DNA from: Hydnum rufescens UP504 | Lineage: Eukaryota > Basidiomycota > Agaricomycetes > Cantharellales > Hydnaceae | Direction of reading: 5' to 3' | DNA length: 44,083 nt | NCBI GenBank assembly: GCA_014904985.1 | Contig: MU129038.1 | Span: 135,161-179,243 of the forward strand | Shown: positions 18,708-42,730 of the stretch, piece after piece | Layout of the letters: each line of letters starts with the position of its first letter | Position numbering within the stretch: the stretch's first letter is position 1 | Notes under the pieces: model-generated | The model's database searches: none | Told to the model about the DNA's origin: nothing | The model's input: only the letters and a program-made list of their open reading frames with translations | Position numbers and translations under genes: made by a program

Positions 18708-21700
18708 AGTCGAGCAAAATACCCAAAAGCTGAAGTTGTTGCACAAGGCCCTTCCAGATTTGTGTTCTCACAAGAACCTTCGGCCTCTCAATCAGATACA
18801 GCACTTTCCTTCGACATCCGTAGTGCTACTCCATCAGAGTTTGTTGCACAATACCAGCTTAATCTTGATTACGAGCCTTGGCTGGCTCCCAACCCACATA
18901 TCCACATTGTAACGAAAGAGTTGAGGCATGCCAGGTGGAAACATGTGCAAGCCGCATGCTGGAGCCAGACAGTTCTACCGATTCTCATAAGACCGTTTAT
19001 GCATGAGCAGGCGTCATCACACCGTTCGCCAAGTTTCCCGGAGTGCGGGATTGTCAATGTATGCTCCTGCATGACGCATCACAGGACTCTGAAGGTTGTG
19101 TGTGTCTCGATTGAAGGTATGCATATCGCATCCCCCATCTGTTATGATGCCTTGACTTACAGTAGATTATATAGCCCTCTACAATATTGAACTCTCGCTT
19201 TGCAACCACTCCCATTTGGCACCAGAGCAGCTCATGGAAATCGGCTATTTCCCATGCACTCCAGTATATCCTATGCTTGCTGTGAGCTTGGATATGCTGG
19301 AGTTAGTCTCGATATTGTTTGTCCATTCTGCACCAAATGAAAGAGCGTGGGCAGTGACCATCACGAAATACCTCAAGAATTGTGGTCATGAATTTTCAAC
19401 TGGAGATTCCTTGCGGCGACGGTTTGCCGCTGCCCTGGTGCAGTATCAAGTCCTGATACAGCTTGTGGATGGAGAGATGGGTAGGATCACTGATGATATC
19501 AGGGGAACAAGATCCTGTAGGACAATTGCGCTTGATGAAAAGTCACCTGTCCACATGCACAAGTACCCAAATGCGCAGACATCCACAGGACCTACTGTGA
19601 TGCAGGATAGTAGTTCTACTGATTCCTCTACTTCCCACGGCAACATCTCTACCTCCAACAGTAGTCCCATCTCCCACCCACAAGAGTGTTCCGCCACCTA
19701 CCTTCAACATGCTTGTCCCCTCTGTTTTGGTGGCCTTAATATGGATGCTGGGAACACGAGTGTGGATCTCATCGTGTGTCTGGATGCAAACTTCCAGTTG
19801 AAGCGGAATTGGGACAGAGACCAAAGACAGGAGTACAAAGGCCAGGCCAGGTCTCTAGACCCTGAAGTCACTTTGCCACGGACTATCTTCCTTAGTGAAT
19901 CGCAGATCTGGGTGTGGGAGGAAAGGGTTGAGGCCATACGCCCCTCCAGACCAAAGTCAGGGGATAAGCAAATGGCCAAGGAGATGGAGACAACTGAAGC
20001 CAACTTGATGGACAGAGGCAGGGCTACTGAGATTGAGCCTGGAATGAATTTGCCAAATGCAACATACGATGCATGTCGAGATTCATTCATTGCAGCTGAC
20101 AGTGACTGGATCAAGGCCTCCTTGACTTTTTTTGACTCAACGGGTGTCATGGCAATGCTTTGTCACCACGACTGTCCTCTATTGTTGGCAAATTTAAAAA
20201 CTGCAGGTGAAAAACAGTTCTACCCTTTCACACTCATATCCGCCTTGATGAACTCATTGCCGGGCCATTGGAGAGTTGGGATTCTCTACGACATCGGGTG
20301 CCAACTGCATCACACCCTCCAGAAATGGGATTTCATGCCCCAATTTTTCCATCGACTTGTGTTTGCAGTCTCTATCTTCCATGCTTATGGTCACCAGTGG
20401 GCATGCCAGCTTTGGTACCACCCTCAAAAGGCCGAGCTATGGGGCTTGTCGGATGGGGAGGGATGCGAACGGTTTTGGAGCAAGCTGCGAAAGTTAATCC
20501 CAGGTCTCAGGGTCACTGGGGTGCGCTACATGGTTTAACGAGACATCTCATTGTCATTGATATATGAACTTTATGACAGCATCACTGACACCTTTTCATT
20601 TTGGATCGTCAGGTGGAGTACATCCATGAGATGAAGCAGGCTGGGATGGGCAAATGGTTGCAAGATCGAGTCCATCGAGCTAATGAGCATCTTAATGAGG
20701 CGTTGGCAGTTGTGGATGCATGTCCTCATCGGTTGGACTTAGATGGACTGCTGGCCCAGTTCAAGGAACAACATGAGTTCCAAACTAAATCAGTTGACCG
20801 TAAGTAGCTCCCTTATTGTGGGATTGAGAATAATGCTAATGTCAAGTCTTGTAGGGCAATCATGAACAAAAGGGACATGGGCAATTGAGCAAATATTAGC
20901 ACTTGAGGGGGCATTGGAATCGCAGCAGGGGATCTTGGTGATGCTTTCGAAGGAGTTAGGAGGCTTAGTGAGGGATGATAGTGTCAGAGGTCAAAGCTTG
21001 CACAAGGAGTGGAAGGAGAGGGTTTGGATTGCCAAGGACTCAATATCATGCCTTGAAGAGAACATTGCCAAGAAGATAAAGGCTCTTCGACTTCAAGATC
21101 GCACATCTGCAGACCGACTGGCTAGTCTCAAGAAAGACAAGTGGATCAACCTTCAACTCAATATACGAGTTCTTCGAGACCAGTTGCTCAAGAAGCTTTG
21201 TGCACGAAAGTTTGAGCTTGCCAACTTAGAGCATGTCCACACCAGTCGGACCATGGGTATGTCATTCATTATTGTCAAAGTCTGGATCTCAGAAACTAAT
21301 AGGGATGAAGACCAGAAAACCAAGGTGCATGTCGAAAAGGCTGTGAAGCACCAAGCACCAGGCATTGATGTGACACTGAACAAGTACAATGCCTTGCAGA
21401 AGGATATGCTAAGGGAATGGGGAAAGAATGGTGTGAAGAGGGATGCCTATGTTCCCCCAGAGCTGTCGATAGAGGGATTATACAAGTTGGATGTTGATCA
21501 GGACATATGGCAAAATGCGGACATGGCAGACTTCGAGGGAGGGAAGGTTCCACTATGGCCCTCAGATACAGAGGTTCAGGATGGGATACGGGCTGCTCAG
21601 GAGGTTAAGAGCTGTCGGGAAGAGCTTTTCCGATGTGAATGGGAGCACTCAAACCTTCGTCTATGGCTTCTGAATGACTATGAGGTGGTACGACAAGTCT

Positions 21701-22389: not shown

Positions 22390-24816
22390 GCAATGCTAGT
22401 CAAGTACCTGAAGGCCCGCAGATACCACTTCGTGACTGCTGATTTGTTTCACCATTGCTTTGCCAACGCACTTGCTCATTACCAGCAGCTTGTGAGACTT
22501 GTTGATGCAGAGGTTGAAAAATTGGTGGATCATTTGTGAGCCCTTAGTGGTGAAGATTGTGTGGCACCCCAGTTGGATGAGACTAACCCGGTCAATGGGC
22601 GAGAGTATTCAAATGCGCAGAACACTGCAACCTTCCTGAGCGATCACAACATCCCTAGTACCTATCTGCAGACACGGTGTCCCTTATGTTTTGGTAGTAA
22701 TAGCTCAGAGAATGGGGATTTGAAGGTTGATGCTATTGTGTGCCTCGATGCAAACTTCCAATTGAAACGTCAGCGAGACTTGGACCGACACGCTGGTCAT
22801 CAGGGTGAGACTGGGACCCAGGATCCTTTTGTTGTGTCACCAAGAACAATTGAGCTATTGCAGAGAGATTTGGAACTGTGGGAGGCCAAAATCCTTGACC
22901 TTCGACCTGAGAAGTCCTCAGCCCGAGCTGGGCAGAAGTGAAAAGCCAACAAGACCATGGAAAGTGAGGTGCACGCTGTAGAGGATGAAGACAAGGTGGA
23001 GGACGATCTTAAAATGCTGAATTCAACATATAGTGCATGTGGCGAGTCCTTTATTGCTGTGGATGGAGACTGTGTCAAGGCTTCAACTCAATATTTCAGT
23101 GATACTGGTGTTCTTGCCATGCTCTGCCGCCACGATATTCCCCTAGTTATTGCTAGCATGTGGACTGCTGGTGAAAAACAGTTCTATGCATGCACTCTTC
23201 TTGATTTCCTTTTCAAGCATTTGCCTCATTGCTGGAGAATTGGTGTTTTGTACAATATTGGCTGCCAAATGGACCAGTCATTGAAGAAATGGAATTTCAT
23301 GCCCAACTGGTCTCCATGTCTCGAGTGGGGCATCTCAATTTTCCACGCTTATGGCCACCAGTGGACGTGCCAACTCTGGTACCATCCAAGAAAGAGCACA
23401 ATTTGGGGCCTCTCAGATGGAGAAGGGTGTGAACGTTTTTGGAGTGGACTCCACTGACTTATTCCATGCCTTAGGGTAACAGGCTATCATCGACACCTTT
23501 TCATTCTTGATCTACAAGTGGAATGCATTGATGAAGAGAAGTGGGGGGACTTTGGAAAATGGCTGCGGGTCCGTGTTGATTGAGCTCAATCTCAGTTGGA
23601 TGAGGCTAAAGAGAAGCTTGCCGAAAGTACATTTTCAATCAAGTACCTCCTCCACCAATTCAAAGAGCAACATGCATATCATAGTAAACCTATCATGTGG
23701 CAGTCAAAAACCCAAGGGGCTCGTGCAATAGAGCACATCCTGTCCTTGCAGTCAATGTTAGAGGCACAACAAGAGAATTTATGGGAACTGATTAGCAAAG
23801 GGAATGATGTGATCCCCGAAGACTCTGCTGGTGAAGCCGTACTTGTCGAGTGGCAGGAAAGAGTTCATTCGACCAAGCTGGCTATTAGTCAACTTCAGTC
23901 CAATATCAAGAAAAAGACGGAAGGGCTGAAATTAGGGGATCGGGTGGCAGCACGGAAGCTAGAGCAACTGAAGAAGGATAGATGGATCACAATGCAACTT
24001 AATCTTCACATTCTTCGCGAGCAGCTTGTGCAGAAGTTACATGCCTGCAAATTCGAACTTGCAACACTGGATCATGCCCATTCTACATGGATATTGCACC
24101 AGAAGACAAAGGTGCATGTTGAGAAGGCGGTACACCATCACTTGTCCAGGATTGATGCAATGATGAAAAAATACAATGCAAAGATAAAGGAGATGGCAGA
24201 ATATCGTCAGACATCAAGGACAATATCAAAAAGTGCATATATTCCTCCCTTGCTTTTAAAGGAGGGTTTGTACAAGATGGATGTGGATCAGGATATATGG
24301 GAGGATGCGCGGGCTGACGTTGGAGACTTTCCTGACAGTGTTCTTCCTCAGTGGTTGGTGGATGCTTCGGTCAAAAAGGGTATTTTCATGGCACAAGAAG
24401 TGGTTAATTGTGAGCAAGAGTTGGAGAGGTGCAAGGTGGAGAGCAGTAACCTTTGAACATGGTTCTACATGAAATATTGGGTGGTCAAGAGACTAGTCAA
24501 AGAAGCGGATGATGAAGTATCATTCTTTGCACTTCACCAACTCCATCAATTGTATGAGTGGCTAGAACTCTGGAGGGTGAACATGATCCATGTTCCTACT
24601 CTGTCTACTGCCCCAAGCTGGGATGAGTTTCTTCCCCCTCCGACACTGGAACATCATGCATCATGCATACGAGTCCATGTGCCTAATGTAGATGGTGATG
24701 ATGATGATGCCATATCTTCAGATGATGATCAAGATGGAGAAGTAGAGGAAGATATAGAGACTGAGGATCTTGGATTTATCACGTTAATAGACAATGTAAT
24801 AGGAGACTTTCAGTAA
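22390..24816 (+). pseudogene. KDZ transposase, 5'-truncated pseudogene (copy 3)
   Basis: Starts inside the family's N-terminal helical region (VKYLKARRYHFVTADLFHHCF, matching TKYLKNCGHEF... of the copy at 19.3 kb). It continues through CPLCF, VCLDANFQLKR, VLYNIGCQM, FHAYGHQWTCQLWYHPRK and SDGEGCERFWS. The second catalytic position reads YNIGC instead of YDIGC, so the Asp is lost. Stops: TGA at 22537-22539, 22939-22941, 23455-23457, 23581-23583 and 24454-24456. Several fall at Arg positions of related copies. The C-terminal helices (CKFELATLDHAH, KVHVEKAV, DVDQDIWEDA) and acidic tail are kept to 24816. The introns seen at the equivalent C-terminal sites of copy 2 are absent or shortened here. 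It sits in tandem with copy 2, 290 bp downstream, but is diverged from it. Confidence 0.88.
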
Positions 24817-25081
24817 TACTATAGTCTTAACCCATATTCGGTTGATAGACTGAGATTTTGCACAAGTCCCAATAAATGAGGCACTTGACAATGATTGATG
24901 TCAAAAGATTGTCAAATTGTAGGTTCCCATTGTCAAGATTCAGTTTTTTGATCATCACTTGACATCAACCATTATTTCAGCCATTTAGGCATACCTAAGT
25001 CATCAACATGTCCCTCCTTTTAAGGCCCCTCTATATGGCTGACCAGGCTGTGCTATAGTAAGGTCAGCTGACACTCAAGCC
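24817..25081. other. Spacer, no gene seen
   Basis: AT-rich, non-coding. Contains an inverted TTGTCA / TGACAA theme (24885-24970: CTTGACAATG, GATTGTCAAATTG, CATTGTCAAG, CTTGACATC), possibly a decayed palindrome end. Confidence 0.4.
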
Positions 25082-32714: not shown

Positions 32715-32900
32715 CAGGCTGGTCAGTCACTTTTGCCCATCATATTAGATATAATGCACATTGCATTTATTATATCTAATTAGATGTATTTACTGTGGTC
32801 CCCCTGGGGGCCCCTGGGAGGTGTTTTGGAGGTGGGTATCCTACAGCCAGGGGCCCCTGGGGGCCCCAAGAGACTTTTAGGGGCCCCAAAATGGCCTTGG
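32715..32900 (+). repeat. Left terminal region of the outer KDZ element
   Basis: Starts CAGGCTGGTCAGTCA, which aligns with the ends of the nested element (CAGCCTGGTCAGCCA and CAACTCAGTCAGCCA). It is followed by ATTAGATATAAT, TATATCTAATTAGAT and three GGGGGCCCCTGG/GGGGCCCC blocks, the same order as in the nested element. The 8 bp before it, TATGGGGA (32707-32714), would be the target duplication. I found no second copy or right end in the window. Confidence 0.65.
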
Positions 32901-33003
32901 GACTGCCTCCAAAGACCTTGTTCTAATAATGGATATTTTCTAAGTTCACTGGCACAAGGGGAGGGGCCCCAATTATTATTCAAAATTATGTAAGTATAAA
33001 TCT

Positions 33004-36000
33004 CTACAAGTCAATACTGGAGTCCCAGTCACTACTTCCTGCATCAGAGGCCCCATCATCTGAGCACTGCTGACAGATTAGATCTGAAGCAGCAAGGATA
33101 TCCATATCTGCCAGAACAGGAGCAGGCTCCAGTTCCAGATCTTCATCATCATCAGAACTATCAACATCGCTCTCAATGCCATTGGAATCTAGTTTCCTGG
33201 GCCTATCAGACTGCTGTGGTCTTGCATGGGCTGGAGCCTGTATCTGTTCTGCCAAAAGTCCTACACTGTGCGACAATGGGTGTCGAGCTGGCAATGATGG
33301 AGCCATGGCATCAGATATGACCAAAGCATCCAGTGATCGCCCCCAAGTCTGGCCAAGATTGCAAACAACTCAAAGACGTTCCAAGAGGAAGAATTTCACA
33401 TCTGAGTCTTAGATTCAAAGCATTCATTAGAAGAATTGGCCAAACTAAGAAGAAAGATATCATACCTGTGGAAGAATTCAATAGAGTCATCATTGCAGCC
33501 GATTCCTCATCAAACCAATGTTCAAGAGAATGTCTTTCTCTCCAACAAAGCTTGAGTTCATCCTGACAGTTAGCAATGTCTTGGACAAGTCGTATTCCAT
33601 TTCGAACCATTTCATCGCCCAGCCAAGGCGGAACATCACCGTCGAACTCATCATCAGCAAGACCAATGTCCTGCCAAATGTCATTATCAACATCCAGGCT
33701 GAAGAGCCCTTTCATATCGATAGATGGCGGAATGAGAGCATTTTGAGGGATACCTTGACGACCACGAAGCTTCTTCATACTTTCTTGGTGTTTATTGTAC
33801 TCTGCAACAAGACCCTTGACAGATTGATAACAGCGCTTGATTGCTCTGCTGGTGTGCTGCAGGGTACTATGGTCTGTAACACAATCAGATTTGCCAGTGA
33901 GCACAAGCAAATAGCGAAATAATAGATTATGAGTACACACCTACAGCCTTGATTCAAAAAGCACCAGTGAGATTATGAGTTTCGAAATTTTTCTCACACA
34001 CCCTTGTGATAATCCGAGCTTTGAGGGCATGCATGTTCAGCTGATGTTCAAACCATGCGTGGTGTTTCATTTTTTGCAGTTGCTTGAATGAGACTGGATC
34101 ACCGAGCTGCAACGTTGCCATCATATCCTCATCTTGTTTTGATAAATGTGAGATGACTTTCTCTTGCTCAGCAATTGCGGACGTTATCTCACCAATCTCA
34201 TTCCTACTGGCAATGCTGTCCACCACTGGGGCAGCGACAAGCTGTTGCTGGAGAGCCCTGACCAAATCACGAGCCACATTAATGCGTTGACACACAGCAA
34301 GGATCTTCTCAACAGCGTGGAAACCCTTTTTCTTGGATTGTCATTCCAAAGGTCGGCTTTGATACACTCGTTGTTCTTCAAATTGTGCTCAAAGGTACTC
34401 GTCACTGTAAATAATTGCTGACCTCTTCTGCTGAGCAAGAAAAAGATGTTCCATCGTCGACTTCACACGTCTCTCCAACCAGATTCCAGCCTGGGACAAC
34501 TTAACATCATCTAGGTGTTCAATTTGGAGATCAAGGATGAACAACCGACGATGATATCCAGACACACGCAGGTTGGGAATAAGATGTCGAAGGTCACTCC
34601 ACAGATGCTCACAACCCTCACCATCCGTCAGCCCCCAGACATCCCCCTTCTGAGGATGATACCACAGCTGGCACACCCATTGATGACCGTACGCGTGAAA
34701 AACACTGATGGCAAATATGATGCATGGCATCCACTGTGGCAGAAGATCCCATTTGAGAGCACTGTGGTGGATCTGGCAGCCAATGTCATACAGGATACCA
34801 ACTCGCCAATGCTCAGGAAGCTCAGCCATGACTGCATCGATAAGGGCGAAGGCATAGAACTGCTGTTCACCAGGAGTCCACATACTGGCATAGACAATCA
34901 CACAATCATGTTGGCAGACTGCAGCTATCACTCCAGTGTCAGAGAAATGGTCCCCAGGTGTCTTTATTCTGTTTCCATCGGCTGCCACAAAGGACTCACC
35001 ACGGGAATCAAGAGATGAATTGGGGACTTGTAGCCCTGGTTCAATTGCATCTCCATGATCATCATGAGGTGCATACTCGCCTTTGTTAGATCGTCTTGGG
35101 GCTTTGGCATTATTGCCTTCATGTTGCATGGAGCGCGCGGCCTCGACTCTCGCTTTCCAAGCTTCCAGGAAACTGCAGGGTACTTCGTGTGTTCCTGGTG
35201 CGACAATGTGAGGATCTTGGACACCAGGTTGTTTCTTGTGGCCTGGATGTCGGTCATAGTCCTTGTTTTGGCACAAAGCAAAGCAAGCATCAATGCATAT
35301 GAAGAGTTCAGGGCTACAAAGGGTGCTTCATAAGTAAGAGTTAAGAACTACATAGACATTACTTACAGCTTGCTTCCTGTGGTCTGACTGCCAGCTCCAG
35401 CACATAATGGGCATCGAGAACGAATATAATCAGATGGAGTAAGACAAGGATTATGAGGGGGGTCCAGGTTTGGGACATCAGTACTTGGCAAGTTGCCATG
35501 AGAAACAGTGGGCACACTCTGAGAAGCAGTGGGCTTGCGAATAGTGAGGCCGTTGCTGCTCAGGGCACCGACATACAGCTGGTGTGTGATAGGGGTGATC
35601 ACATCAATCTTTGGTAAAGGTATCACTTCAGACATGACAGCCTCTCGTTTGATGGGGTCTCAGGATAGGACTTCCTGATGGGCAATGCCTATTTGCTTGT
35701 CCATTTCAGCATTGACAACTCATATCAGAACTTGATACTGGTGCAGTGCAGTCCCAAATCTCTGACAGAACAAGTCTTTTGCATCGAATACATGTCCTCT
35801 CTTTGACAAGAACATTGTGAGAGCATCACACCATGCGGCTTCATTCGGAGCGAGATGGATGAATAGTGTTGCAGCGAATTCCAGCATTTCCAGGCTGATT
35901 GCAAGGGCCAGATAAACAGGCAAGCAAGGAAATAATCCCTGCTTTACTAGTTGAACTGGAGCACTCGCAGTTGTACATCGACACATGTGTAACTCAATGC

Positions 36001-36775
36001 TACCAAGACCTATGGAAGTCTGTCTGTTAGTTAGAATCTAACCATGATATTAAGGCAAAACTACGTACGATCCATGTAAACAGTAGTAACCACCTTAAAT
36101 ACTGCAGGGCCACCACATGAACACTCGACCGACACATGATCTATGTGAGATTGGCCCCACTTCGACCGGCGTATGTACTCCATATATGGACGAATTAAGG
36201 AGGGGATAATCTCGTGATCCCACCTCCGTGCTGTGGCAGCCCAGCAACGTGCATGATGAGACAGCGCCTGCTCCACTGAGAAGTGATCTAAACCTCTGGC
36301 ATATGTTGGATATTGTACAGAAAATGGGCATTCCACAGCTTCTGGCAATGGAGCCTCATGACAAGGGGTACTATCGCCACCTACTGCAGTAGAAAACAGC
36401 GATGTGTGGCGTTCCTTGTCATGGAGATCGGTGGATGACATGGCAGATGATACAGGTTGATGATAATGGGGTGCTGAGATTGCTGGTTGTGCAGGCCGGT
36501 TAACAGCCTTATGCACTGGCACGACAGTAACAAATGTGCCAGTCTCCTCGTCCAACTTCCACACAGAAGAAGTTGCGATCAGTGCTAGTTTCTTAGGGCC
36601 TTTACGACCTGTCGAACTTGAGGGCTCCTGCAGAAGAATTGTTTTGGGAGCCACCGATTTCTTTGAGATCCCACGATGGGCACGTCTGGGAGGTTTTGGA
36701 CAAGTATCAGCCACATCCTGGAACAAGGCCACACCTGCCTTGAAGGCATTTGTATATGTGGAGGAGGGGTCAGTC
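33004..36775 (-). pseudogene. KDZ transposase, split by an insertion (copy 4, main part)
   Basis: Read leftwards: FKAGVALFQDVADTCPKPPRR (36745), a Cys-containing region ending VYMDR, and an intron 36068-36010 (GTACGT...TTCTAAC...CATAG). Then FPCLPVYLALAISLEMLEF, CPLCAG, an intron after 35363, FICIDACFAL (35290), LYDIGCQIHH, FHAYGHQWVCQLWYHP, and TDGEGCEHLWS. The helical C-terminal half ends in an acidic tail (SSDWDSSIDL, stop at 33004). The three catalytic acids (IDA, YDIGC, DGEG) are kept. Stops include TGA at 35722-35720 (HQYQVLI*), TGA at 35662-35660, TGA after YSDEYL near 34389, and TGG-to-TGA in the 'WQSK' motif near 34340. The N-terminal exon lies beyond the nested element, at 42804-42723. 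Confidence 0.85.
36768..36775. repeat. Target-site duplication, left copy (GGTCAGTC)
   Basis: Identical to 42723-42730. The identity extends one base leftwards (GGGTCAGTC), but the reading frame test fits an 8-bp duplication. Confidence 0.85.
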
Positions 36776-36930
36776 CAGCCTGGTCAGCCAATTATCAGTA
36801 TCTAATTAGATACTTTGAAGGTTGCATTTATATGCTCTAACTAGATATCAGACCCGGGGCCCCCAGGGGCCCCTGCAATTCAGTCGAGGGGGCCGGTCAA
36901 GCAGCCCAGGGGCCCCTGGGGCCCCTAGCC
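36776..36930 (+). repeat. Left terminal inverted repeat of nested element
   Basis: Holds TATCTAATTAGATA (36799-36812), TCTAACTAGATA (36836-36847) and three GGGGCCCC-containing blocks (36855-36926). The same order appears inverted at 42570-42722. Confidence 0.8.
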
Positions 36931-36942
36931 ATTAGGATTATT

Positions 36943-36982
36943 GATTTATTATTTATTTATTTATTTATTATTATTATTATAT
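36943..36982. repeat. (TTTA)n/(TTA)n microsatellite
   Basis: ATTTATTTATTTATT followed by TTATTATTATTA. Counterpart of the (AAT)n at 42420-42456 near the opposite end. Confidence 0.9.
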
Positions 36983-36990
36983 ACAGTACA

Positions 36991-37102
36991 CTAGGCTCAC
37001 CCATGCACCCAAGAAGAGCAGCCACAGGCTGCTCTTCTTGTGCACTTGGAGCAAAATGGAAAATGCATACCTTAAATGACCACCCCTGCCACAGCAGGGG
37101 TG
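36991..37102 (-). repeat. Array unit L1 (left end, truncated)
   Basis: Leftward unit. The P1 palindrome is diverged (CACCCCTGC/GCAGGGGTG, 37081-37102). The donor-like GTATGC starts at 37070. P2 hairpin at 37010-37040 has 14-bp perfect arms, CAAGAAGAGCAGCC/GGCTGCTCTTCTTG, and a 3-nt loop. No CTAAC; a CCTAG at 36994-36991 could be an acceptor. Confidence 0.7.
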
Positions 37103-37237
37103 TGCTTGCATGGGATCCTGTTCATGCGTTCATGTGGCCTCGTTTGCCTATTTGCATGGGGCCCAGTGCGCACATCTCGTGGGGGCTTATTCGGGGGTTC
37201 ACACAGGTTCCTGTCCAGGGGGAGGTTATTTTGTCAC

Positions 37238-37380
37238 CTAAAATAAACAATGTGTTAGGTAAATGTAATAAAGTGCAAGATGAGCAGCCCATGGCTGCTC
37301 TTCTTGCGTGATTGTAGCTCCAGAAAAAAAAACTTACCTTGAGAGTACCACACACCTGCCACAGCGGGTGTGTGGTACTC
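37238..37380 (-). repeat. Array unit L2
   Basis: P1 at 37343-37380, with arms GAGTACCACACACC and GGGTGTGTGGTACTC. Intron-like stretch 37337-37238 (100 bp): GTAAGT, P2 hairpin 37276-37306 (one mismatch, AGATGAGC), CTAAC at 37258-37254, and TTTTAG. Best-formed leftward intron together with L4. Confidence 0.8.
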
Positions 37381-37516
37381 GCACATTCGCGGTTTCGTTC
37401 ACGGGATTTGGTTTCGCAGGGTGGGTTTGGGGTCGCGGGGCTTCGGGTCATGGGTTTCGGTTTGCGGGGTTTCAGGTTGTGGGTTTGCTGTTGGGGGTTC
37501 GTGCAGGGTTCAAGAT
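37381..37516 (-). other. Spacer of degenerate AACCC(G/A)CAAACCGAAACCC motifs
   Basis: Read on the minus strand, this and other spacers are strings of CCGCRAAACC/AACCGAAACCC-like words. They resemble the CCGCCAAACGAACCC words of the rightward half. Probably non-coding. Confidence 0.5.
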
Positions 37517-37666
37517 CTAGAAAAATAAAGGTGTTAGTTATTAAACATTAAAGCATCACAAGAAGAGCAGCTTACGCTGCTCTTCTTGCGCCACAAAAAT
37601 AAAATAAAAAATAAAGATAAACTCAGCTTGGAGTACCACACACCCGCCGCAGTGGGTGTGTGTGGT
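37517..37666 (-). repeat. Array unit L3
   Basis: P1 at 37632-37666 (CCACACACCC/GGGTGTGTG). The donor position reads AAG then CTGAGT (37626) in place of GTGAGT. P2 at 37559-37588 has 13-bp perfect arms and loop TTAC. CTAAC at 37537-37533. TTTTTCTAG ends at 37517. Confidence 0.75.
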
Positions 37667-37868
37667 TTTGTTGGCTCTGCATCATTTCATGTCTTCAGTG
37701 TGGTCCTTCACATGTGGTGTTCATTTGGCGTGTGGCCTTCAGCATGTGGGTTACCGTCTAGCAGGTGTCCATGTGGTGCGCAGTCGTTTCGGGGGCTCGG
37801 GGTTCATTTGGCAGGTCTTTACTTGGTGGGCGTGTGTTCCGTTTGTTGGTTGTGGGTCAGCCGACAAC

Positions 37869-38009
37869 CTGGAAAAGCAGATACATTAGTTAGAAATTAA
37901 AACCAGCACAAAAAGAGCAGCTTTTGCTGCTCTTTTTGTGCGGCTGTATCGATTTGGGGGAGAACTCACCTTATATAGTACCACACACCCACTGCAGTGG
38001 GTGTGTGGT
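37869..38009 (-). repeat. Array unit L4
   Basis: P1 at 37980-38009 is a perfect 30-bp palindrome (half: ACCACACACCCACTG). Intron-like 37969-37869 (101 bp): GTGAGT, P2 at 37906-37941 with 16-bp perfect arms (GCACAAAAAGAGCAGC) and loop TTTT, CTAAC at 37893-37889, and TTTTCCAG. Confidence 0.85.
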
Positions 38010-38039
38010 CTCTGGTTCACTCATTGGGCGCGTCTGGTG

Positions 38040-38495
38040 TGTTGGGCACATTCTCGTGTGTCATGTCCTCATGTGTCGTGTCCTCGTGTGTTGCATTCTC
38101 ATGTGTCACGTTCTCATGTGTCGTGTCCTCGTGTGTCGCATTCTCGTGTGTCGCGTTCTCATGTGTCGTGTCCTCGTGTGTCGCATTCTCGTGTGTCGCG
38201 TTCTCATGTGTCGTGTCCTCGTGTGTCGCATTCTCGTGTGTCGCGTTCTCATGTGTCGTGTCCTCGTGTGTCGCATTCTCGTGTGTCGCGTTCTCATGTG
38301 TTGTGTCCTCGTGTGTCGCATTCTCGTGTGTCGCGTTCTCATGTGTTGTGTCCTCGTGTGTCGCGTTCTCATGTGTCGCGTTCTCATGTGTCGTGTCCTC
38401 GTGTGTTGCGTTCTCGTGTGTTGCGTTCTCGTGTGTCGTGTCCTCGTGTGTTGCGTTCTCGTGTGCCGCGTTCTCATGTGCTGCGTTCTTTTTTC
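38040..38495. repeat. 15-bp minisatellite, about 30 units
   Basis: Units CTC(A/G)TGTGT(C/T)G(C/T)(A/G)TT or ...GTC, with a 45-bp higher-order period (…GTC, …ATT, …GTT). It occupies the spacer between L4 and L5. Because 15 is a multiple of three, long frames appear on both strands; I do not treat them as genes. Confidence 0.95.
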
Positions 38496-38559
38496 TCGCA
38501 TTTCTGTTTGGGCCAGTGTCGTTTGATGAGGCCCCACCGTGCCTTGACCAGGTTGTGAT

Positions 38560-38720
38560 CTAGAATAATAAAAGACAATAAAAGATATGTTAGTAAAAAA
38601 ATCTAAAGGAGCACAAAAAGAGCAGCAGCAGCTGCTCTTTTTGCGCTATTGTAGCTACTACAATAAAAAAAGAAACTCAGCTTATATGACCACACACCCA
38701 CAGCAGCAGGTGTGTGGTCA
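38560..38720 (-). repeat. Array unit L5
   Basis: P1 at 38687-38720 (TGACCACACACC/GGTGTGTGGTCA). The donor position reads CTGAGT (38680), as in L3. P2 at 38611-38646 has 16-nt arms with one mismatch and loop AGCA. TACTAAC at 38595-38589. TATTCTAG ends at 38560. Confidence 0.75.
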
Positions 38721-38799
38721 TCTGCTTCCCTTTTCGGGCGGTTGCCCTGCTTCCTTTTCTGGGCAGTTGTGGTGGGTGGTTGTTGTGGTTGTGAAGAGA

Positions 38800-39456
38800 A
38801 CGCAACTCAATGCCGGCAAATGCCGGCACTCAAAAAGTGCCCAAGTCTTGTGGCCACAAGCACAATATAAATTAATAGCAAGCACCTAGACATGTTCTAA
38901 ATACTAAATAATAAATATTTATCCAAAAATGCAAAAGAAGATCACGATAATAAGTTAGGGCTCAATAAGGCACAATAGGCCTATATTATAAAGTGGATTG
39001 GGCCACTTCTATAGTCAGAAGTGGCCCAAATTTAAATATATTGTGGGTATATGTTCCCCCTACATGGGCGACTAATTATACCGGGTGTTCCTTCCATTTT
39101 TCAATTTTTCATGCCTTCAATTCCCTATTTAGAGAATTGAAGGTGTGAAAAATTGAAAAATGGAAGGAACACCCTGTATAATTAGTCGCCCACATAGGGG
39201 GAACATATACCCACAATATATTTAAATTTGGGCCACTTCTGACCTATAGAAGTGGCCCAATCCACTTATAATATAGGCCTATTGTGCCTTATTGAGCCCT
39301 AACTTATTATCGTTATCTTCTTTCACATTTTTGGATAAATATTTATTATTTAGTATTTAGAACATGTCTAGGTGCTTGCTATTAATTTATATTGTGCTCA
39401 TGGCCACAGGACTTGGGTGCTTTTGAGTGCTGGCATTTGCCGGCGTTGAGTTGTGC
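38800..39456. repeat. Central ~650-bp palindrome
   Basis: Two ~325-bp arms around 39128. Matched landmarks: CAATGCCGGCAAATGCCGGC (38808) with GCCGGCG at 39440; GCACCTAGACATGTTC with GAACATGTCTAGGTGC; GGCCACTTCT/AGAAGTGGCC; and GGGGGAACATATACCCAC with its mate. Innermost CAATTC...GAGAATTG leaves a loop of about 8 nt. Arms are near-identical, with a few mismatches and small indels. It separates the leftward and rightward arrays, so it could act as a bidirectional promoter or an inversion centre; this is inference. Confidence 0.92.
39066..39191. repeat. Inner palindrome core with TATAC(A/C)GGGTGTTCC ends
   Basis: GGGCGACTAATTATAC(A/C)GGGTGTTCC occurs inverted at both sides (the central 126 bp). 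The ACAGGGTGTTCC word resembles outer ends of some mariner/pogo-type elements, so a small fold-back element may have seeded the palindrome. Weak evidence. Confidence 0.4.
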
Positions 39457-39511
39457 TCTCCGCAACTGCGCAGCCACACACCGAACAGACAACCGAGAGA
39501 GGCAAGCCAAC

Positions 39512-39661
39512 GACCACACACCTGCAGCAGCGGGTGTGTGGTCATGTAAGGTGAGTTTTTTTTTATTGAAGCAGATATGCTGGCACAAAAAGAGCAGCAA
39601 AAGCTGCTCTTTTTGCATGGCTTGGAATATCATTACTAATGTTATTCTTTTATTATTTTAG
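39512..39661 (+). repeat. Array unit R1
   Basis: P1 at 39512-39543 (GACCACACACC/GGTGTGTGGTC). Intron-like 39551-39661 (111 bp): GTGAGT, P2 at 39583-39616 with loop AAAA, TACTAAT at 39633-39639, and TTATTTTAG. Confidence 0.8.
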
Positions 39662-39813
39662 ATCATGGCCTGGTGCTCGAAAGAAAACCGGCCAACGATG
39701 AGGGCCGAATGGTCAGGGTCCAAACGACAATGTGCCAACTGAATACGCAACAAACAAAAAGGCGCCAAATGACACCATGACAAGTGAGAACACGCCCACC
39801 GAGTGACCATGTG

Positions 39814-39955
39814 AACCACACACCCACTGCGGCAGGTGTGTGGTTCTATGTAAGGTAAGTCCATCGTGCACCTCTAATAGCCCAAAAAGAGCAGCCAATG
39901 CTGCTCTTTTTGGGCTGGTTTTAATTTTTAACTAATATATCATCTCTTATTCTAG
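39814..39955 (+). repeat. Array unit R2
   Basis: P1 at 39814-39845 (AACCACACACC/GGTGTGTGGTT). Intron-like 39855-39955 (101 bp): GTAAGT, P2 at 39879-39916 with 17-bp perfect arms (AGCCCAAAAAGAGCAGC) and loop CAAT, AACTAAT, and TATTCTAG. Confidence 0.85.
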
Positions 39956-40074
39956 ACCATCGCCTCAACCACAAGAAACCCCGCCAAACGAACCCCCCTC
40001 AAAACAACAACCTGCACGCCACCCCCGAATCATCACCCACCAAAACTGTGCCAGAAGACCATGAGAGCCACAAG

Positions 40075-40219
40075 AACCATGCACCTGCCAAAGGGGTGCA
40101 TTGGTTTTCAAGGTAAGTACTTACCATCACACAAAAGGAGCAGCCTAGGCTGCTCCTTTTGCATGGCTTTTCTTTTTTATTTATTTTGGCTCTGACTAAC
40201 GTTTGATTTATTATCGTAG
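40075..40219 (+). repeat. Array unit R3 (both stems changed on both sides)
   Basis: P1 at 40075-40106 has become AACCATGCACC/GGTGCATTGGTT, still self-complementary. Intron-like 40113-40219 (107 bp): GTAAGT, P2 at 40132-40161 now CAAAAGGAGCAGCC/GGCTGCTCCTTTTG (extra G·C pairs on both sides, loop TA), GACTAAC, and TATCGTAG. Confidence 0.82.
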
Positions 40220-40287
40220 GTTGTCCATCTGTACCCACAACCCGCACAAACCGTGAATCGAAAACCCCGACCCACCTATGGATGCTG

Positions 40288-40945
40288 TGGTTCAGGTTTA
40301 AACCTGTGGAACCTGAGTTTAAACCTGAACCTGACCCAGGTCAGGTTCCATTGGGGTCAGGTTCATTTCATTTTCTCAGGTCAGGTTCAGGTTTTGCCCT
40401 TGCCCTGAATCCAAAAACCGGTCTGAAACCAGGTTTAAACCTGAACCTGAAAGGTAGGGTGTAGGTTCCATTCCATGTAAATTGACCACTATTCTGCCAC
40501 CAAATCTGGCAATTTACACATGTGACTATAGTTCTGGAGTCAGAAGTCACATGACTTGGCCATCAAATGAGGTAATTGGTGCAGGTCACAAGTCACATGA
40601 CAGAATGTAGTGTCTAAATACCATCTCCAGAAGATGTGTGAGCAGTAAATTGAAGTGAAAGGGGGCTAGGAAGGAGATGTGGATGTAAAGCAGGATGTAA
40701 AGGGAGTGGCAGAGGCAGAGACTTGAGCACAGGGTGTAGATATTCTGTAGTACCCCCTGAAAATGTTGGCTTCCCTCATACCTCAGGTTTCAGGTTTAAA
40801 CCAGGTTTAAACCAGAACCTGACCTGAATGAGACCAAACCTCAGGTCAGGTTCAGGTTTTGCCCTCATGGGTGATTTTGGAACCTGGTCAGGTTTAGGTT
40901 TTGCCCAAATTGGGCAAAACCTGACCAAAACCTGACCATGGCAAC
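40288..40945. mobile_element. Insertion with CAGGTT / AACCTG repeat ends
   Basis: About 650 bp between R3 and R4. Both ends are crowded with CAGGTTTAAACCTG, GGTCAGGTT and AACCTGACC words in inverted arrangement (40290-40455 and 40783-40940). The middle is unique (40460-40780). It breaks the regular ~250-bp unit spacing, so it looks like a MITE-like insertion. No convincing target duplication; the ends are approximate. Confidence 0.6.
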
Positions 40946-41013
40946 CATAGACCCGCCAGACAAAACCTGGGAACAGGGATGCACAACGCAAGACACCAGA
41001 AACGCCAGACAGA

Positions 41014-41135
41014 ACCACACACCCACTTCAGCGGGTGTGTGGTAATACTAGGTATCTCTAATCCCACCGGTGCCAAAAGAGCAGCAGAAGCTGCTCTTTT
41101 GGCACCTCTGTTTTCTCTTTTTTACTGGAAACAAG
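41014..41135 (+). repeat. Array unit R4 (acceptor decayed)
   Basis: P1 at 41014-41043. Donor-like GTATCT at 41052. P2 at 41069-41106 has 17-bp perfect arms (GGTGCCAAAAGAGCAGC) and loop AGAA. Then TTTACTGGAAACAAG, where other units have TTTACTAAC...CTAG, so branch and acceptor motifs are damaged. Confidence 0.75.
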
Positions 41136-41168
41136 GCATATACCACGCACCGAGAATGCCCCAAATGA

Positions 41169-41309
41169 ACCACACACCTGCTGCAGCAGGTGTGTGGTAA
41201 TATATAAGGTAAGTAAATGTAGTGTATGCAACTGTGCAAAAAGAGCAGCAAATGCTGCTCTTTTTGCGCTGGTTATGATCTCTTACTAACATATTATCGA
41301 TTTTTCTAG
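41169..41309 (+). repeat. Array unit R5
   Basis: P1 at 41169-41198 is a perfect 30-bp palindrome (half: ACCACACACCTGCTG), differing from L4 and R8 at two positions with matching changes in the other arm. Intron-like 41209-41309 (101 bp): GTAAGT, P2 at 41236-41267 with loop AAAT, TACTAAC at 41284-41290, and TTTTTCTAG. Confidence 0.85.
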
Positions 41310-41460
41310 GACATCGCCTGAACCGGAACCCACCAAATGAACGCACGCCAAATGAACCCCCCCCCTCCCAAACAACCAACCACTGAATGAAGGCCCACCG
41401 AACGCAACCTGCCAAACAAGACCCGCCAAGCGAAGACCCGCCAAACGAATAACCACATAA
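41310..41460 (+). other. Spacer ('exon') between R5 and R6
   Basis: Made of CC(G/A)CCAAA(C/T)GAAC-type words. All three forward frames are closed: TGA at 41319, 41338 and 41384. This argues against a protein-coding exon. Confidence 0.6.
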
Positions 41461-41601
41461 ACCACACACCCACCAAAGCGGGTGTGTGGTAATACAAGGT
41501 ATGTTTTTATTACTGTAAATACAGTGGCGCAAAAAGAGCAGCAAAAGCTGCTCTTTTTGCACTGCTTTGAATCATTGATACTAACATATCTATTATTTTA
41601 A
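41461..41601 (+). repeat. Array unit R6 (acceptor lost)
   Basis: P1 at 41461-41490. Donor-like GTATGT at 41499. P2 at 41529-41560 has 14-bp perfect arms and loop AAAA. TACTAAC at 41579-41585. The acceptor place reads TATTTTAA instead of TATTTTAG. Confidence 0.78.
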
Positions 41602-41706
41602 ACATGCCCGCCAAACCAGAGGCTGAAACCCGACACACCAAGAACACCCCCCAGACGAAACCCAGTAATGGAACACATGGCATGAGGCTGCAGGGGCCCT
41701 GAACAA

Positions 41707-41844
41707 ACCACGCACCCGCTTCAGCGGGTGTGTGGCAATATTGGGGTGAGTTTTTGAGTACAGTATGGTGCCAAAAGAGCAGCATCAGCTGCTCTTTTGG
41801 CATTGTCTTCGGTTTTTTTTCTTTACTAATGTCTTATTATCTAG
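41707..41844 (+). repeat. Array unit R7
   Basis: P1 at 41707-41735 (ACCACGCACC...GGTGTGTGG). Intron-like 41746-41844 (99 bp): GTGAGT, P2 at 41769-41802 with 15-bp perfect arms and loop ATCA, TACTAAT at 41824-41830, and TATCTAG. Confidence 0.82.
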
Positions 41845-41947
41845 GTACCTCCACTGCGCAATACCCCACCTGATGAGGTTCGAGACGAATATGAATGTGC
41901 GCAGCTGCCCAGACCCCGGATCTGCACGACACCGAACTAAATATGGT

Positions 41948-42094
41948 ACCACACACCCACTGCAGTGGGTGTGTGGTAATACCTGGTAAGTTATCAATTA
42001 CAGGACGTATGATGGTGCCAAAAGAGCAGCAGAAGCTGCTCTTTTGGCGCTGCCTCTTTTGTTTTTTTTATTAACATATTATTTACTGATCTAG
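41948..42094 (+). repeat. Array unit R8
   Basis: P1 at 41948-41977 is a perfect 30-bp palindrome identical to that of L4. Intron-like 41986-42094 (109 bp): GTAAGT, P2 at 42014-42051 with 17-nt arms (GGTGCCAAAAGAGCAGC; one mismatch near the base) and loop AGAA, ATTAAC, and GATCTAG. Confidence 0.82.
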
Positions 42095-42218
42095 GTGCCT
42101 TCTCCCTCCCTGTGTGAAAAACCCCACACGAAATACGGAGGCATAGCCCCTGACAACTGTGCCTGAGGGCCCAGCCCTCAAACACCCGCAACTGATGCGA
42201 CCCTGGGCAAAGCACCTG

Positions 42219-42328
42219 GTAAGTTCTTAATTACAGGACGTACAAGGGGGCCAAAAGAGCAGCTTCTGCTGCTCTTTTGGCCCCCCTTGTTTTCTTTTTT
42301 ACTAATGTATTGTTATTTGTTGTTCTAG
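42219..42328 (+). repeat. Array unit R9 (right end, without P1)
   Basis: Intron-like 42219-42328 (110 bp): GTAAGT, the longest P2 (42244-42286, arm AAGGGGGCCAAAAGAGCAGC, one bulged C in the other arm, loop TTCT), TACTAAT at 42300, and TTGTTCTAG. The upstream spacer has TGAGGGC/GCCCTCA (42164-42181) in place of P1. Confidence 0.8.
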
Positions 42329-42417
42329 GTCCCCTCCAGAAAATCATGCCAGAGACGGGCTGGGCAGCAGTCTGATTCCCAATTGGGAGTGAGGTGCATG
42401 ATAAGGGGAGGATATGT

Positions 42418-42457
<40 letters not shown>

Positions 42458-42569
42458 CATTATAAACAAAACACACCACCCCAGAGGGGTATGTAAGAAT
42501 AATACTACAGTGGTGCAGGAGAGAGCCCTGGTTGAGATCTATAAGTTGGAGCTTGGTTTGATGTGTGAG
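42329..42569. other. Outer non-repeated part of the nested element
   Basis: No gene seen. Lies between the last unit and the right terminal repeat, includes the (TAA)n tract and CACCCCAGAGGGGTATG (42477), perhaps a decayed P1. Confidence 0.45.
42420..42456. repeat. (TAA)n microsatellite
   Basis: About eleven TAA units plus AATAAATAAATC. It lies at the mirror position of the left-end microsatellite. Confidence 0.9.
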
Positions 42570-42722
42570 GTCCCACACAGGGCCCCTGGGGGCCCCTGCC
42601 TGAATCACGGAAATCAGGTTAGCCGGCCCCAGGGGCCCCTGCTATCAAAACCTCTAGTTAGACTATATACATGCAAGGCTTGTAATATCTAACTAGATAT
42701 ACATTTGTGGCTGACTGAGTTG
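42570..42722 (-). repeat. Right terminal inverted repeat of nested element
   Basis: Reading inwards: GTCAGCCA, then TATCTAGTTAGATA, TTGCATGTATA, TCTAACTAGA and GGGGCCCC(C/T) blocks. It is collinear with the left end and moderately conserved. Confidence 0.8.
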
Positions 42723-42730
42723 GGTCAGTC
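42723..42730. repeat. Target-site duplication, right copy (GGTCAGTC)
   Basis: Partner of 36768-36775. On the minus strand it encodes the end of 'MTD' in the interrupted KDZ exon. Confidence 0.85.

What the first reader, a model, noticed from the sequence alone, without database searches (positions are those of the whole stretch)
36990..42330. Fourteen intron-like units, each with an upstream palindrome and an internal hairpin, arranged divergently
Each unit follows the order P1 palindrome, 6-10 nt, GTAAGT-like donor, P2 hairpin, CTAAC/CTAAT, TAG. Most intron-like parts are 99-111 bp. Basidiomycete introns normally share only the splice signals; here a hairpin with fixed core AGAGCAGC/GCTGCTCT sits mid-intron in every unit. 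The spacer 41310-41498 has stops in all frames, so a protein gene is unlikely. Candidate explanations: an introner-like family that spread inside a transposon, a multiply spliced structured non-coding RNA, or a tandem duplication of one exon-intron unit. I know of no described system with this layout.
Basis: partly seen in the sequence, partly recalled or inferred. Interest (0 to 1): 0.93.

Follow-up and report, generated by a model that had tools for sequence, protein, structure and literature searches.

The report
Jumping element with divergent spliced-intron arrays
A jumping DNA element in this fungus carries two outward-facing rows of repeated intron-like units with built-in hairpins, and it is predicted to make spliced RNAs that code for no protein, which would be a kind of mobile cargo that our literature searches did not find described.

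Summary
The window has 14 hairpin units, 5 pointing left and 9 pointing right; 9 of the 14 keep a full donor, branch site and acceptor. They lie inside one discrete insertion, 36776-42722 (5,947 bp), with an 8-bp target duplication; seven paralogous empty sites show the target without it. Its ends match the end of a KDZ-transposon stretch in the same window, so it is most likely a non-autonomous KDZ-type DNA transposon. The genome holds 4,240 P2 and 3,829 P1 palindromes, probably hundreds of copies. Each arm is laid out like a gene: a ~665-bp central palindrome, exon-intron units, an AATAAA tract, then the transposon end. Oriented only by side, 65 of 106 units in nine elements have donor plus branch site and acceptor, against 0 in antisense and 0 in reversed sequence. 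The donor-to-P2 spacer has diverged almost to random. Exons are T-poor, introns T-rich, and the spliced product has no convincing reading frame. Transcription and splicing are predicted, not shown. P1 and P2 also show DNA-level behaviour (CpG decay, inverted loops), so an RNA role for the hairpins is unproven. No copy was seen in a host gene in the sample examined, so 'introner' is not supported.

The parts
36768..36775 (.). target-site duplication, left copy (GGTCAGTC)
   Evidence: empty sites
36776..36790 (+). left terminal inverted repeat CAGCCTGGTCAGCCA, start of the element
   Evidence: 826 places genome-wide match CAGSCTGGTCAGYCA, control 0
36844..36930 (.). left subterminal GGGGCCCC palindromes
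36945..36985 (-). AATAAA-rich tract in sense of the left arm (putative polyadenylation region)
37015..37035 (-). P2 of outermost left unit (donor-like GTATGC at 37070, no branch site or acceptor)
37238..37337 (-). intron-like part, complete; P2 hairpin 37282-37300; P1 at 37348-37375
37517..37630 (-). unit with P2 37564-37583; donor reads CTGAGT (GT lost); CTAAC and acceptor kept
37869..37969 (-). intron-like part, complete (GTGAGT ... CTAAC ... CAG); P2 37914-37933; P1 37981-38008
   Evidence: acceptor read
38034..38480 (-). predicted left-arm exon made of 15-bp tandem repeats
38560..38680 (-). first left unit; P2 38619-38638; donor CTGAGT (GT lost); P1 38690-38717
38796..39460 (.). central palindrome (arms 93.4% identical in inverted orientation), putative bidirectional promoter
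39551..39661 (+). intron-like part, complete; P2 39591-39610; P1 39514-39541
39855..39955 (+). intron-like part, complete; P2 39888-39907; P1 39816-39843
40113..40219 (+). intron-like part, complete; P2 from 40138 (GGAGCAGC core); imperfect P1 around 40076
41015..41115 (+). truncated unit: P1 41015-41042, P2 41078-41097, no branch site or acceptor
41209..41309 (+). intron-like part, complete; P2 41242-41261; P1 41170-41197
41499..41600 (+). unit with donor GTATGT, P2 41535-41554, CTAAC at 41581, acceptor TAG lost; P1 41462-41489
41746..41844 (+). intron-like part, complete; P2 41776-41795; P1 near 41707-41735
41986..42094 (+). intron-like part, complete (GTAAGT ... TTAAC ... TAG); P2 42023-42042; P1 41949-41976
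   Evidence: acceptor read
42219..42328 (+). intron-like part, complete; P2 42256-42275 with inverted loop TTCT; no P1
42422..42456 (+). AATAAA-containing tract in sense of the right arm
42582..42640 (.). right subterminal GGGGCCCC palindromes
42708..42722 (-). right terminal inverted repeat, end of the element
42723..42730 (.). target-site duplication, right copy (GGTCAGTC)

Best explanation
Window 36776-42722 is a discrete insertion with an 8-bp target duplication and ends like those of a KDZ transposon, and it likely works as a non-autonomous mobile carrier of two non-coding RNA genes that would be transcribed outward from a central palindrome and spliced at hairpin-bearing introns. Shown by sequence: the insertion; ends homologous to the end of a KDZ stretch; divergent polarity; conserved donor, branch and acceptor beside a near-random spacer; T-poor exons and T-rich introns; AATAAA tracts in sense beyond the last unit of both arms; no convincing reading frame after virtual splicing. 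Inferred: KDZ transposases move it; the palindrome is a two-way promoter; the units are spliced; the P2 stem-loop folds in the transcript and shortens the effective intron from about 104 to about 68 nt, close to the 40-67 nt gaps between exon matches of actin-family genes here; the array grew by tandem duplication of one exon-intron unit. What the spliced RNA does for the element is the weakest step. The most likely role is in cis: an RNA that looks well spliced keeps the element transcribed and out of silencing.
For: Insertion: TSD 8/8 in window, L009 and L028, 7/8 in L024 (the 4 elements whose two ends were read); 7 of 7 empty-site loci align across the joined flanks at 93-97%. KDZ link: left end versus the end at 32715 scores 51.5 against a maximum of 18 in 300 shuffles; KDZ domain in 3 of 10 window ORFs scanned; at least 154 KDZ matches in the genome. 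Splicing signals: orientation set by side alone, 106 units in 9 chosen elements: donor (GTRAGY or GTATGY) 77, branch+acceptor 83, both 65; antisense 3, 6, 0; reversed 2, 1, 0. Motif orientation agrees with side in 100 of 106. In 87 motif-selected units the donor-to-P2 spacer identity is 0.48 (shuffled 0.43) while donor is 0.84, branch 0.91, acceptor 0.87; the P2 base (pair 16) lies 16-17 nt before the branch site in 53 of 87. Exon bodies T 10.6% (39 exons), introns T 36% (87). AATAAA 62 in sense, 1 antisense, in 14 of 15 arms (61 to 1 and 13 of 14 without L026 plus, whose end is irregular). Non-coding: longest sense stop-free stretch within the shuffle range in 10 of 10 arms, exon lengths in mixed phase. 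RNA fold z -3.1 to -7.1 in 9 window introns. GNRA loops in sense 548, inverted 37; AGAA 79, inverted 31; Fisher p 6e-10.
Against: No transcript data: transcription, splicing and polyadenylation are all unobserved. Five of 14 window units, and 41 of 106 in nine elements, lack the full signal set by the patterns used. The units are related by descent, so the counts are not independent, and the set was chosen by splice-motif score. The P1 and P2 palindromes behave like DNA palindromes too: P1 arm differences look like CpG decay, with wobble-type 23 against A-C-type 19 of 91 classed; P2 loops are sometimes inverted in otherwise like units. No transposase lies in the element; movement by KDZ is inferred from ends only, and the second KDZ-side end tested (25050) matches only in its first 15 bp. 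AATAAA tracts are low-complexity and shared by descent. Three of 12 centres compared gave no full-length palindrome, and in 2 of the other 9 the arms are no closer to each other than to another element.
Confidence: 0.7

Rival explanations
1. The arrays are DNA-level binding sites. P1 and P2 palindromes bind a transposase or host factor, and the splice signals are relics of a captured gene fragment.
For: P1 and P2 are near-perfect DNA palindromes, P2 stems change on both arms together (pair 8 AT 125 / GC 20, pair 10 AT 124 / GC 22 of 149), loops invert, P1 shows no wobble preference. Divergent subterminal arrays are usual in DNA transposons (recalled).
Against: Signals stay at 84-91% identity while the donor-to-P2 spacer is near random; T-poor exons and T-rich introns alternate on both strands; AATAAA tracts follow the sense of each arm; the exact P2 pattern occurs in the window only inside the element, not in its KDZ stretches, although one KDZ-side end is homologous to the element's ends.
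Confidence: 0.2
2. A strict introner family: the intron unit itself is mobile and seeds introns in host genes.
For: Introns of like length with a stable hairpin in thousands of copies.
Against: All 50 P2 places listed (C1-C2) and 4 of 4 apparently isolated places lie in arrays; polarity follows the element's side. The other places were mostly not examined.
Confidence: 0.03
3. The element is a double-stranded RNA source: read-through of the central palindrome gives a long hairpin that feeds RNA interference, and the arrays are passengers.
For: In 7 of 9 elements with a full palindrome the arms are 93-99% identical and closer to each other than to any other element compared; most element pairs are 72-82% identical.
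Against: Unit polarity, AATAAA tracts and exon composition all point outward from the palindrome, not through it.
Confidence: 0.05

Closest known systems
KDZ (Kyakuja-Dileera-Zisupton) DNA transposons of fungi
   Same: CA...TG termini, 8-bp target duplication as reported for Zisupton (PMC12730594, passages read), end sequence homologous to the end of a KDZ stretch in the same window
   Different: no transposase inside; carries divergent exon-intron arrays and a central palindrome; the two Kyakuja families in that paper have 7-bp duplications and no terminal inverted repeats
Introner-like elements (ILEs) of fungi and introners
   Same: many copies of ~100-nt introns with splice signals; the stable structure of ILEs is recalled (the passages read of PMC4457414 do not mention it)
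   Different: copies sit in arrays in a non-coding mobile element, not in host genes, in every place sampled
Symmetrical (D1,2) stwintrons of Hypoxylaceae
   Same: proliferated spliceosomal introns with inverted repeats that can pair (PMC8469720, abstract and outline read)
   Different: there the inverted repeats are terminal and the introns sit at gene positions; here one mid-intron hairpin, no nested intron seen

Membership tests
KDZ DNA transposon, non-autonomous member | precise insertion with ~8-bp target duplication | tested here: met
   8/8 in 3 elements, 7/8 in 1, of 4 whose two ends were read; 7 of 7 empty sites. 8 bp is reported for Zisupton, 7 bp for Kyakuja (PMC12730594, passages).
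KDZ DNA transposon, non-autonomous member | ends shared with an element that encodes a KDZ transposase | tested here: met
   end at 32715, 1.7 kb from a KDZ ORF, score 51.5 vs shuffle max 18. The other end tested (25050) shares only the first 15 bp: score 16.0, reached by 14 of 300 shuffles. Neither KDZ element was delimited at both ends.
KDZ DNA transposon, non-autonomous member | own KDZ transposase (autonomous member) | tested here: not met
   in 36776-42722 the ORFs of 150 aa or more are three overlapping ones in the 15-bp repeats; no sense frame beyond shuffles after virtual splicing
KDZ DNA transposon, non-autonomous member | mobilised by KDZ transposase | not testable with these tools
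   inferred from ends only
Introner / ILE | copies inserted as introns in host protein-coding genes | tested here: not met
   50 of 50 listed plus 4 of 4 isolated-looking places in arrays; a sample of 4,240
Introner / ILE | spliced in vivo | not testable with these tools
   no RNA data available
Introner / ILE | shared sequence beyond splice signals | tested here: met
   P2 stem identity 0.82-0.85 across 87 units
Symmetrical stwintron | terminal inverted repeats of 45-55 nt | tested here: not met
   pairing is a mid-intron stem of about 13-16 pairs

The most novel reading that the evidence does not exclude
A DNA transposon family whose payload is a pair of divergent, multiply spliced, structured non-coding RNA genes built by tandem amplification of one hairpin intron: a mobile intron nursery, in which a GNRA-capped intron hairpin at fixed distance from the branch site is kept because it helps splicing.
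Probability: 0.5. Interest if true: 0.88.

Novelty: new variant of a known kind. Interest (0 to 1): 0.76.

Why it matters
Introns are normally thought to enter genes one by one. Here thousands of intron-like modules, over a thousand of them with an exact GTAAGT donor, lie in tandem and in both directions inside a non-coding jumping element. If spliced, they give a natural library of intron variants to learn which intron features matter, a case of splicing kept without any protein to protect, and a possible way for a transposon to look like a gene to its host.

Tried and rejected
Protein gene: rejected. Virtual splicing of 10 arms gave no sense stop-free stretch beyond the range of 200 base shuffles, and exon lengths are in mixed phase. 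On the antisense strand 4 of 10 arms exceed the range (window plus and minus, L009 minus, L028 minus); I put this down to the 15-bp repeats and the T-poor sense strand, untested.

First version of the by-side test: the donor pattern also let the GTGTGT of P1 pass (97 donors, 77 complete). One search repeats it with stricter patterns (77 donors, 65 complete; with GTRAGT alone 66 and 57); these replace the counts.

RNA structure proved by covariation: not claimed. P1 changes look like CpG decay (wobble-type 23, A-C-type 19, fully paired 49, of 91 classed; 23 of 114 P1 not classed). In P2 pairs 1-18 wobble 166 vs A-C 94, but 17 of the wobbles are one T-G change at pair 1 and 88 come from pairs 17-18, where only 63-64 of 149 units still pair.

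Loop counts: by eye about 6 of the 37 inverted GNRA rows and 2 of the 31 TTCT rows look like upright hairpins read from the other strand beside a chance GTRAGT; leaving them out strengthens the contrast.

Known RNA family: Rfam with a lax threshold gave 40 matches, none at its gathering score, the best on the central palindrome.

Introner in host genes: not supported.

Host intron length: 10 of 11 gaps between neighbouring actin-family exon matches are 40-67 nt, one is 166; these are match edges, not mapped splice sites.

Organism: not settled. For one window ORF three relatives were found, two of them named, both Hydnum rufescens, at 40% and 37% identity. An agaricomycete near the Cantharellales is a guess.

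Literature: seven of eight searches bore on novelty (one search asked about loop inversion); none of the listings showed a non-coding transposon with intron arrays. The library holds open-licence papers only.

Rows dropped: 168 units collected; 19 of unclear orientation left out, 81 in all left out. Searches used the 106 units of nine chosen elements. Of 12 centres compared, L024 (both) and L027 gave no full palindrome. In one search the L026 plus arm was taken to an end that belongs to a neighbouring copy.
Full report
Observation. The window holds 14 P2 hairpins, five read on the minus strand left of 38700 and nine on the plus strand right of 39500. The exact core is in 12. Nine units have a complete donor, branch and acceptor; five do not: 37024 has no branch or acceptor, 37572 and 38629 have CTGAGT for the donor, 41088 is truncated, 41545 has lost its TAG. 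P1 is readable in 13 of 14.

It is one insertion. The element starts CAGCCTGGTCAGCCA at 36776 and ends TGGCTGACTGAGTTG at 42722, flanked by GGTCAGTC on both sides. The three further elements with both ends in hand have 8/8 (L009, L028) or 7/8 (L024) duplications. Seven loci fetched with the right flank (L017-L023) carry the uninterrupted target: the joined flanks align over 285-291 columns at 93-97% in 7 of 7. Another, L015 on contig C217, carries the element's right end and an identical 147-nt flank, perhaps the other haplotype.

It is KDZ-related. KDZ domains lie in ORFs at 19216-20538, 22957-23457 and 34389-35276 (3 of 10 ORFs scanned). The end at 32715, 1.7 kb from the third, shares with the element's left end the first 15 bp (two differences), ATCTAATTAGAT-like palindromes around TTGCATTTAT and GGGGCCCC palindromes (local score 51.5; maximum of 300 shuffles 18). 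The end at 25050 shares only the first 15 bp (score 16.0, reached by 14 of 300 shuffles). The genome has 826 exact CAGSCTGGTCAGYCA (control 0) and at least 154 KDZ matches (150 of 584 candidates scored). The element has no transposase of its own.

Abundance. P2 4,240 places (backwards control 1); P1 3,829 (control 0); GTAAGT 20-50 nt before P2 1,010 (control 0). At about 10-14 units each this would be several hundred elements (inference).

Anatomy. At the centre is a palindrome of about 665 bp (38796-39460). Of 12 centres compared, 9 gave a full-length palindrome; their arm identities are 93.4 (window), 94.8 L008, 98.8 L009, 97.2 L028, 97.2 L011, 97.8 C1, 94.7 L010, 89.5 C2 and 77.7 L026, while different elements are mostly 72-82% identical (exceptions: L009/L011 about 96, L010/C2 up to 92.6, short C1 pieces up to 86). 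So in 7 of 9 the arms are closer to each other than to any other element compared; in C2 and L026 they are not. Outward follow exon-intron units; beyond the last unit an AATAAA-rich tract in sense (62 sense, 1 antisense; 14 of 15 arms; one arm, L026 plus, has an irregular end, and without it 61 to 1 in 13 of 14); then GGGGCCCC palindromes and the terminal repeat.

Are the introns real? With orientation set only by side of the centre, 106 units in nine elements gave donor 77, branch plus acceptor 83, both 65; the opposite strand gave 3, 6, 0; reversed sequence 2, 1, 0 (which corrects a looser donor pattern). Orientation by motif agrees with side in 100 of 106. In 87 motif-selected units median intron length is 104, 68 without the P2 stem-loop; the donor-to-P2 spacer is near random (0.48 vs 0.43 shuffled), the P2-to-branch spacer, T-rich, is 0.60 vs 0.53, while donor, branch and acceptor are 0.84, 0.91, 0.87 identical; pair 16 of P2 lies 16-17 nt before the branch site in 53 of 87. 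Gaps between neighbouring exon matches of actin-family genes in this genome are 40-67 nt in 10 of 11. Exon bodies are T 10.6%, introns T 36%. Virtual splicing gives no sense reading frame beyond shuffles.

RNA or DNA hairpins? Both signatures appear. P1 variants CCCGC/CCTGC/CCCAC are what CpG decay gives, with wobble-type and A-C-type combinations alike (23 vs 19). P2 pairs 8, 10 and 12 change on both sides with few intermediates, which RNA selection or DNA template switching would both give. Loop inversions in otherwise like units (for example C2:157642 GAAA and C134:156734 TTTC) show DNA-level flipping. GNRA loops are seen inverted in 37 of 585, AGAA loops in 31 of 110 (p 6e-10), which hints that the GNRA orientation is kept in the transcript; inheritance by descent is not excluded.

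Not introners, as far as sampled. All 50 P2 places listed (C1-C2) and four places picked because they looked isolated lie in arrays. No host-gene copy was seen; most of the 4,240 were not examined.

Literature. Seven novelty searches listed no such element in the open-licence library. PMC12730594 (passages) gives 8-bp duplications for Zisupton and 7 bp with CA...TG ends and no terminal inverted repeats for two Kyakuja families. PMC8469720 (abstract) describes proliferating symmetrical stwintrons at gene positions.

Verdict. A discrete, KDZ-ended, non-autonomous transposon (firm for the insertion, likely for the KDZ link) with two divergent, tandemly built, predicted spliced non-coding RNA genes (likely). 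The use of the RNA to the element is unknown; the proposal that it keeps the element expressed is inference.

Noticed in passing
32715-36740: A KDZ stretch with its gene on the minus strand (34389-35276 carries PF18758); the array element sits just upstream of it at 36776. Homologous flanks elsewhere are the empty sites.
   Followed up: partly
40290-40940: A repeat rich in GGTTTAAACC/CAGGTTCAGG palindromes interrupts the right arm between units, likely a nested insertion.
   Followed up: no
38034-38480: 15-bp tandem repeats fill one predicted exon; exon bodies of other units also show a weak 15-nt period (0.35 vs about 0.29).
   Followed up: partly
G000:C217:7605-8396 (L015): Element right end with an identical 147-nt flank: the same insertion on another contig, perhaps a haplotype copy.
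   Followed up: no
L024:4756-4768: Two array elements lie next to each other only 11 bp apart.
   Followed up: no
L011:5246 and 5686: A left end and a right end face the same way with target duplications that are reverse complements of each other, as after an inversion.
   Followed up: no
P2 loops genome-wide: Hairpin loops occur inverted in otherwise matching units, a trace of hairpin flipping in DNA.
   Followed up: partly
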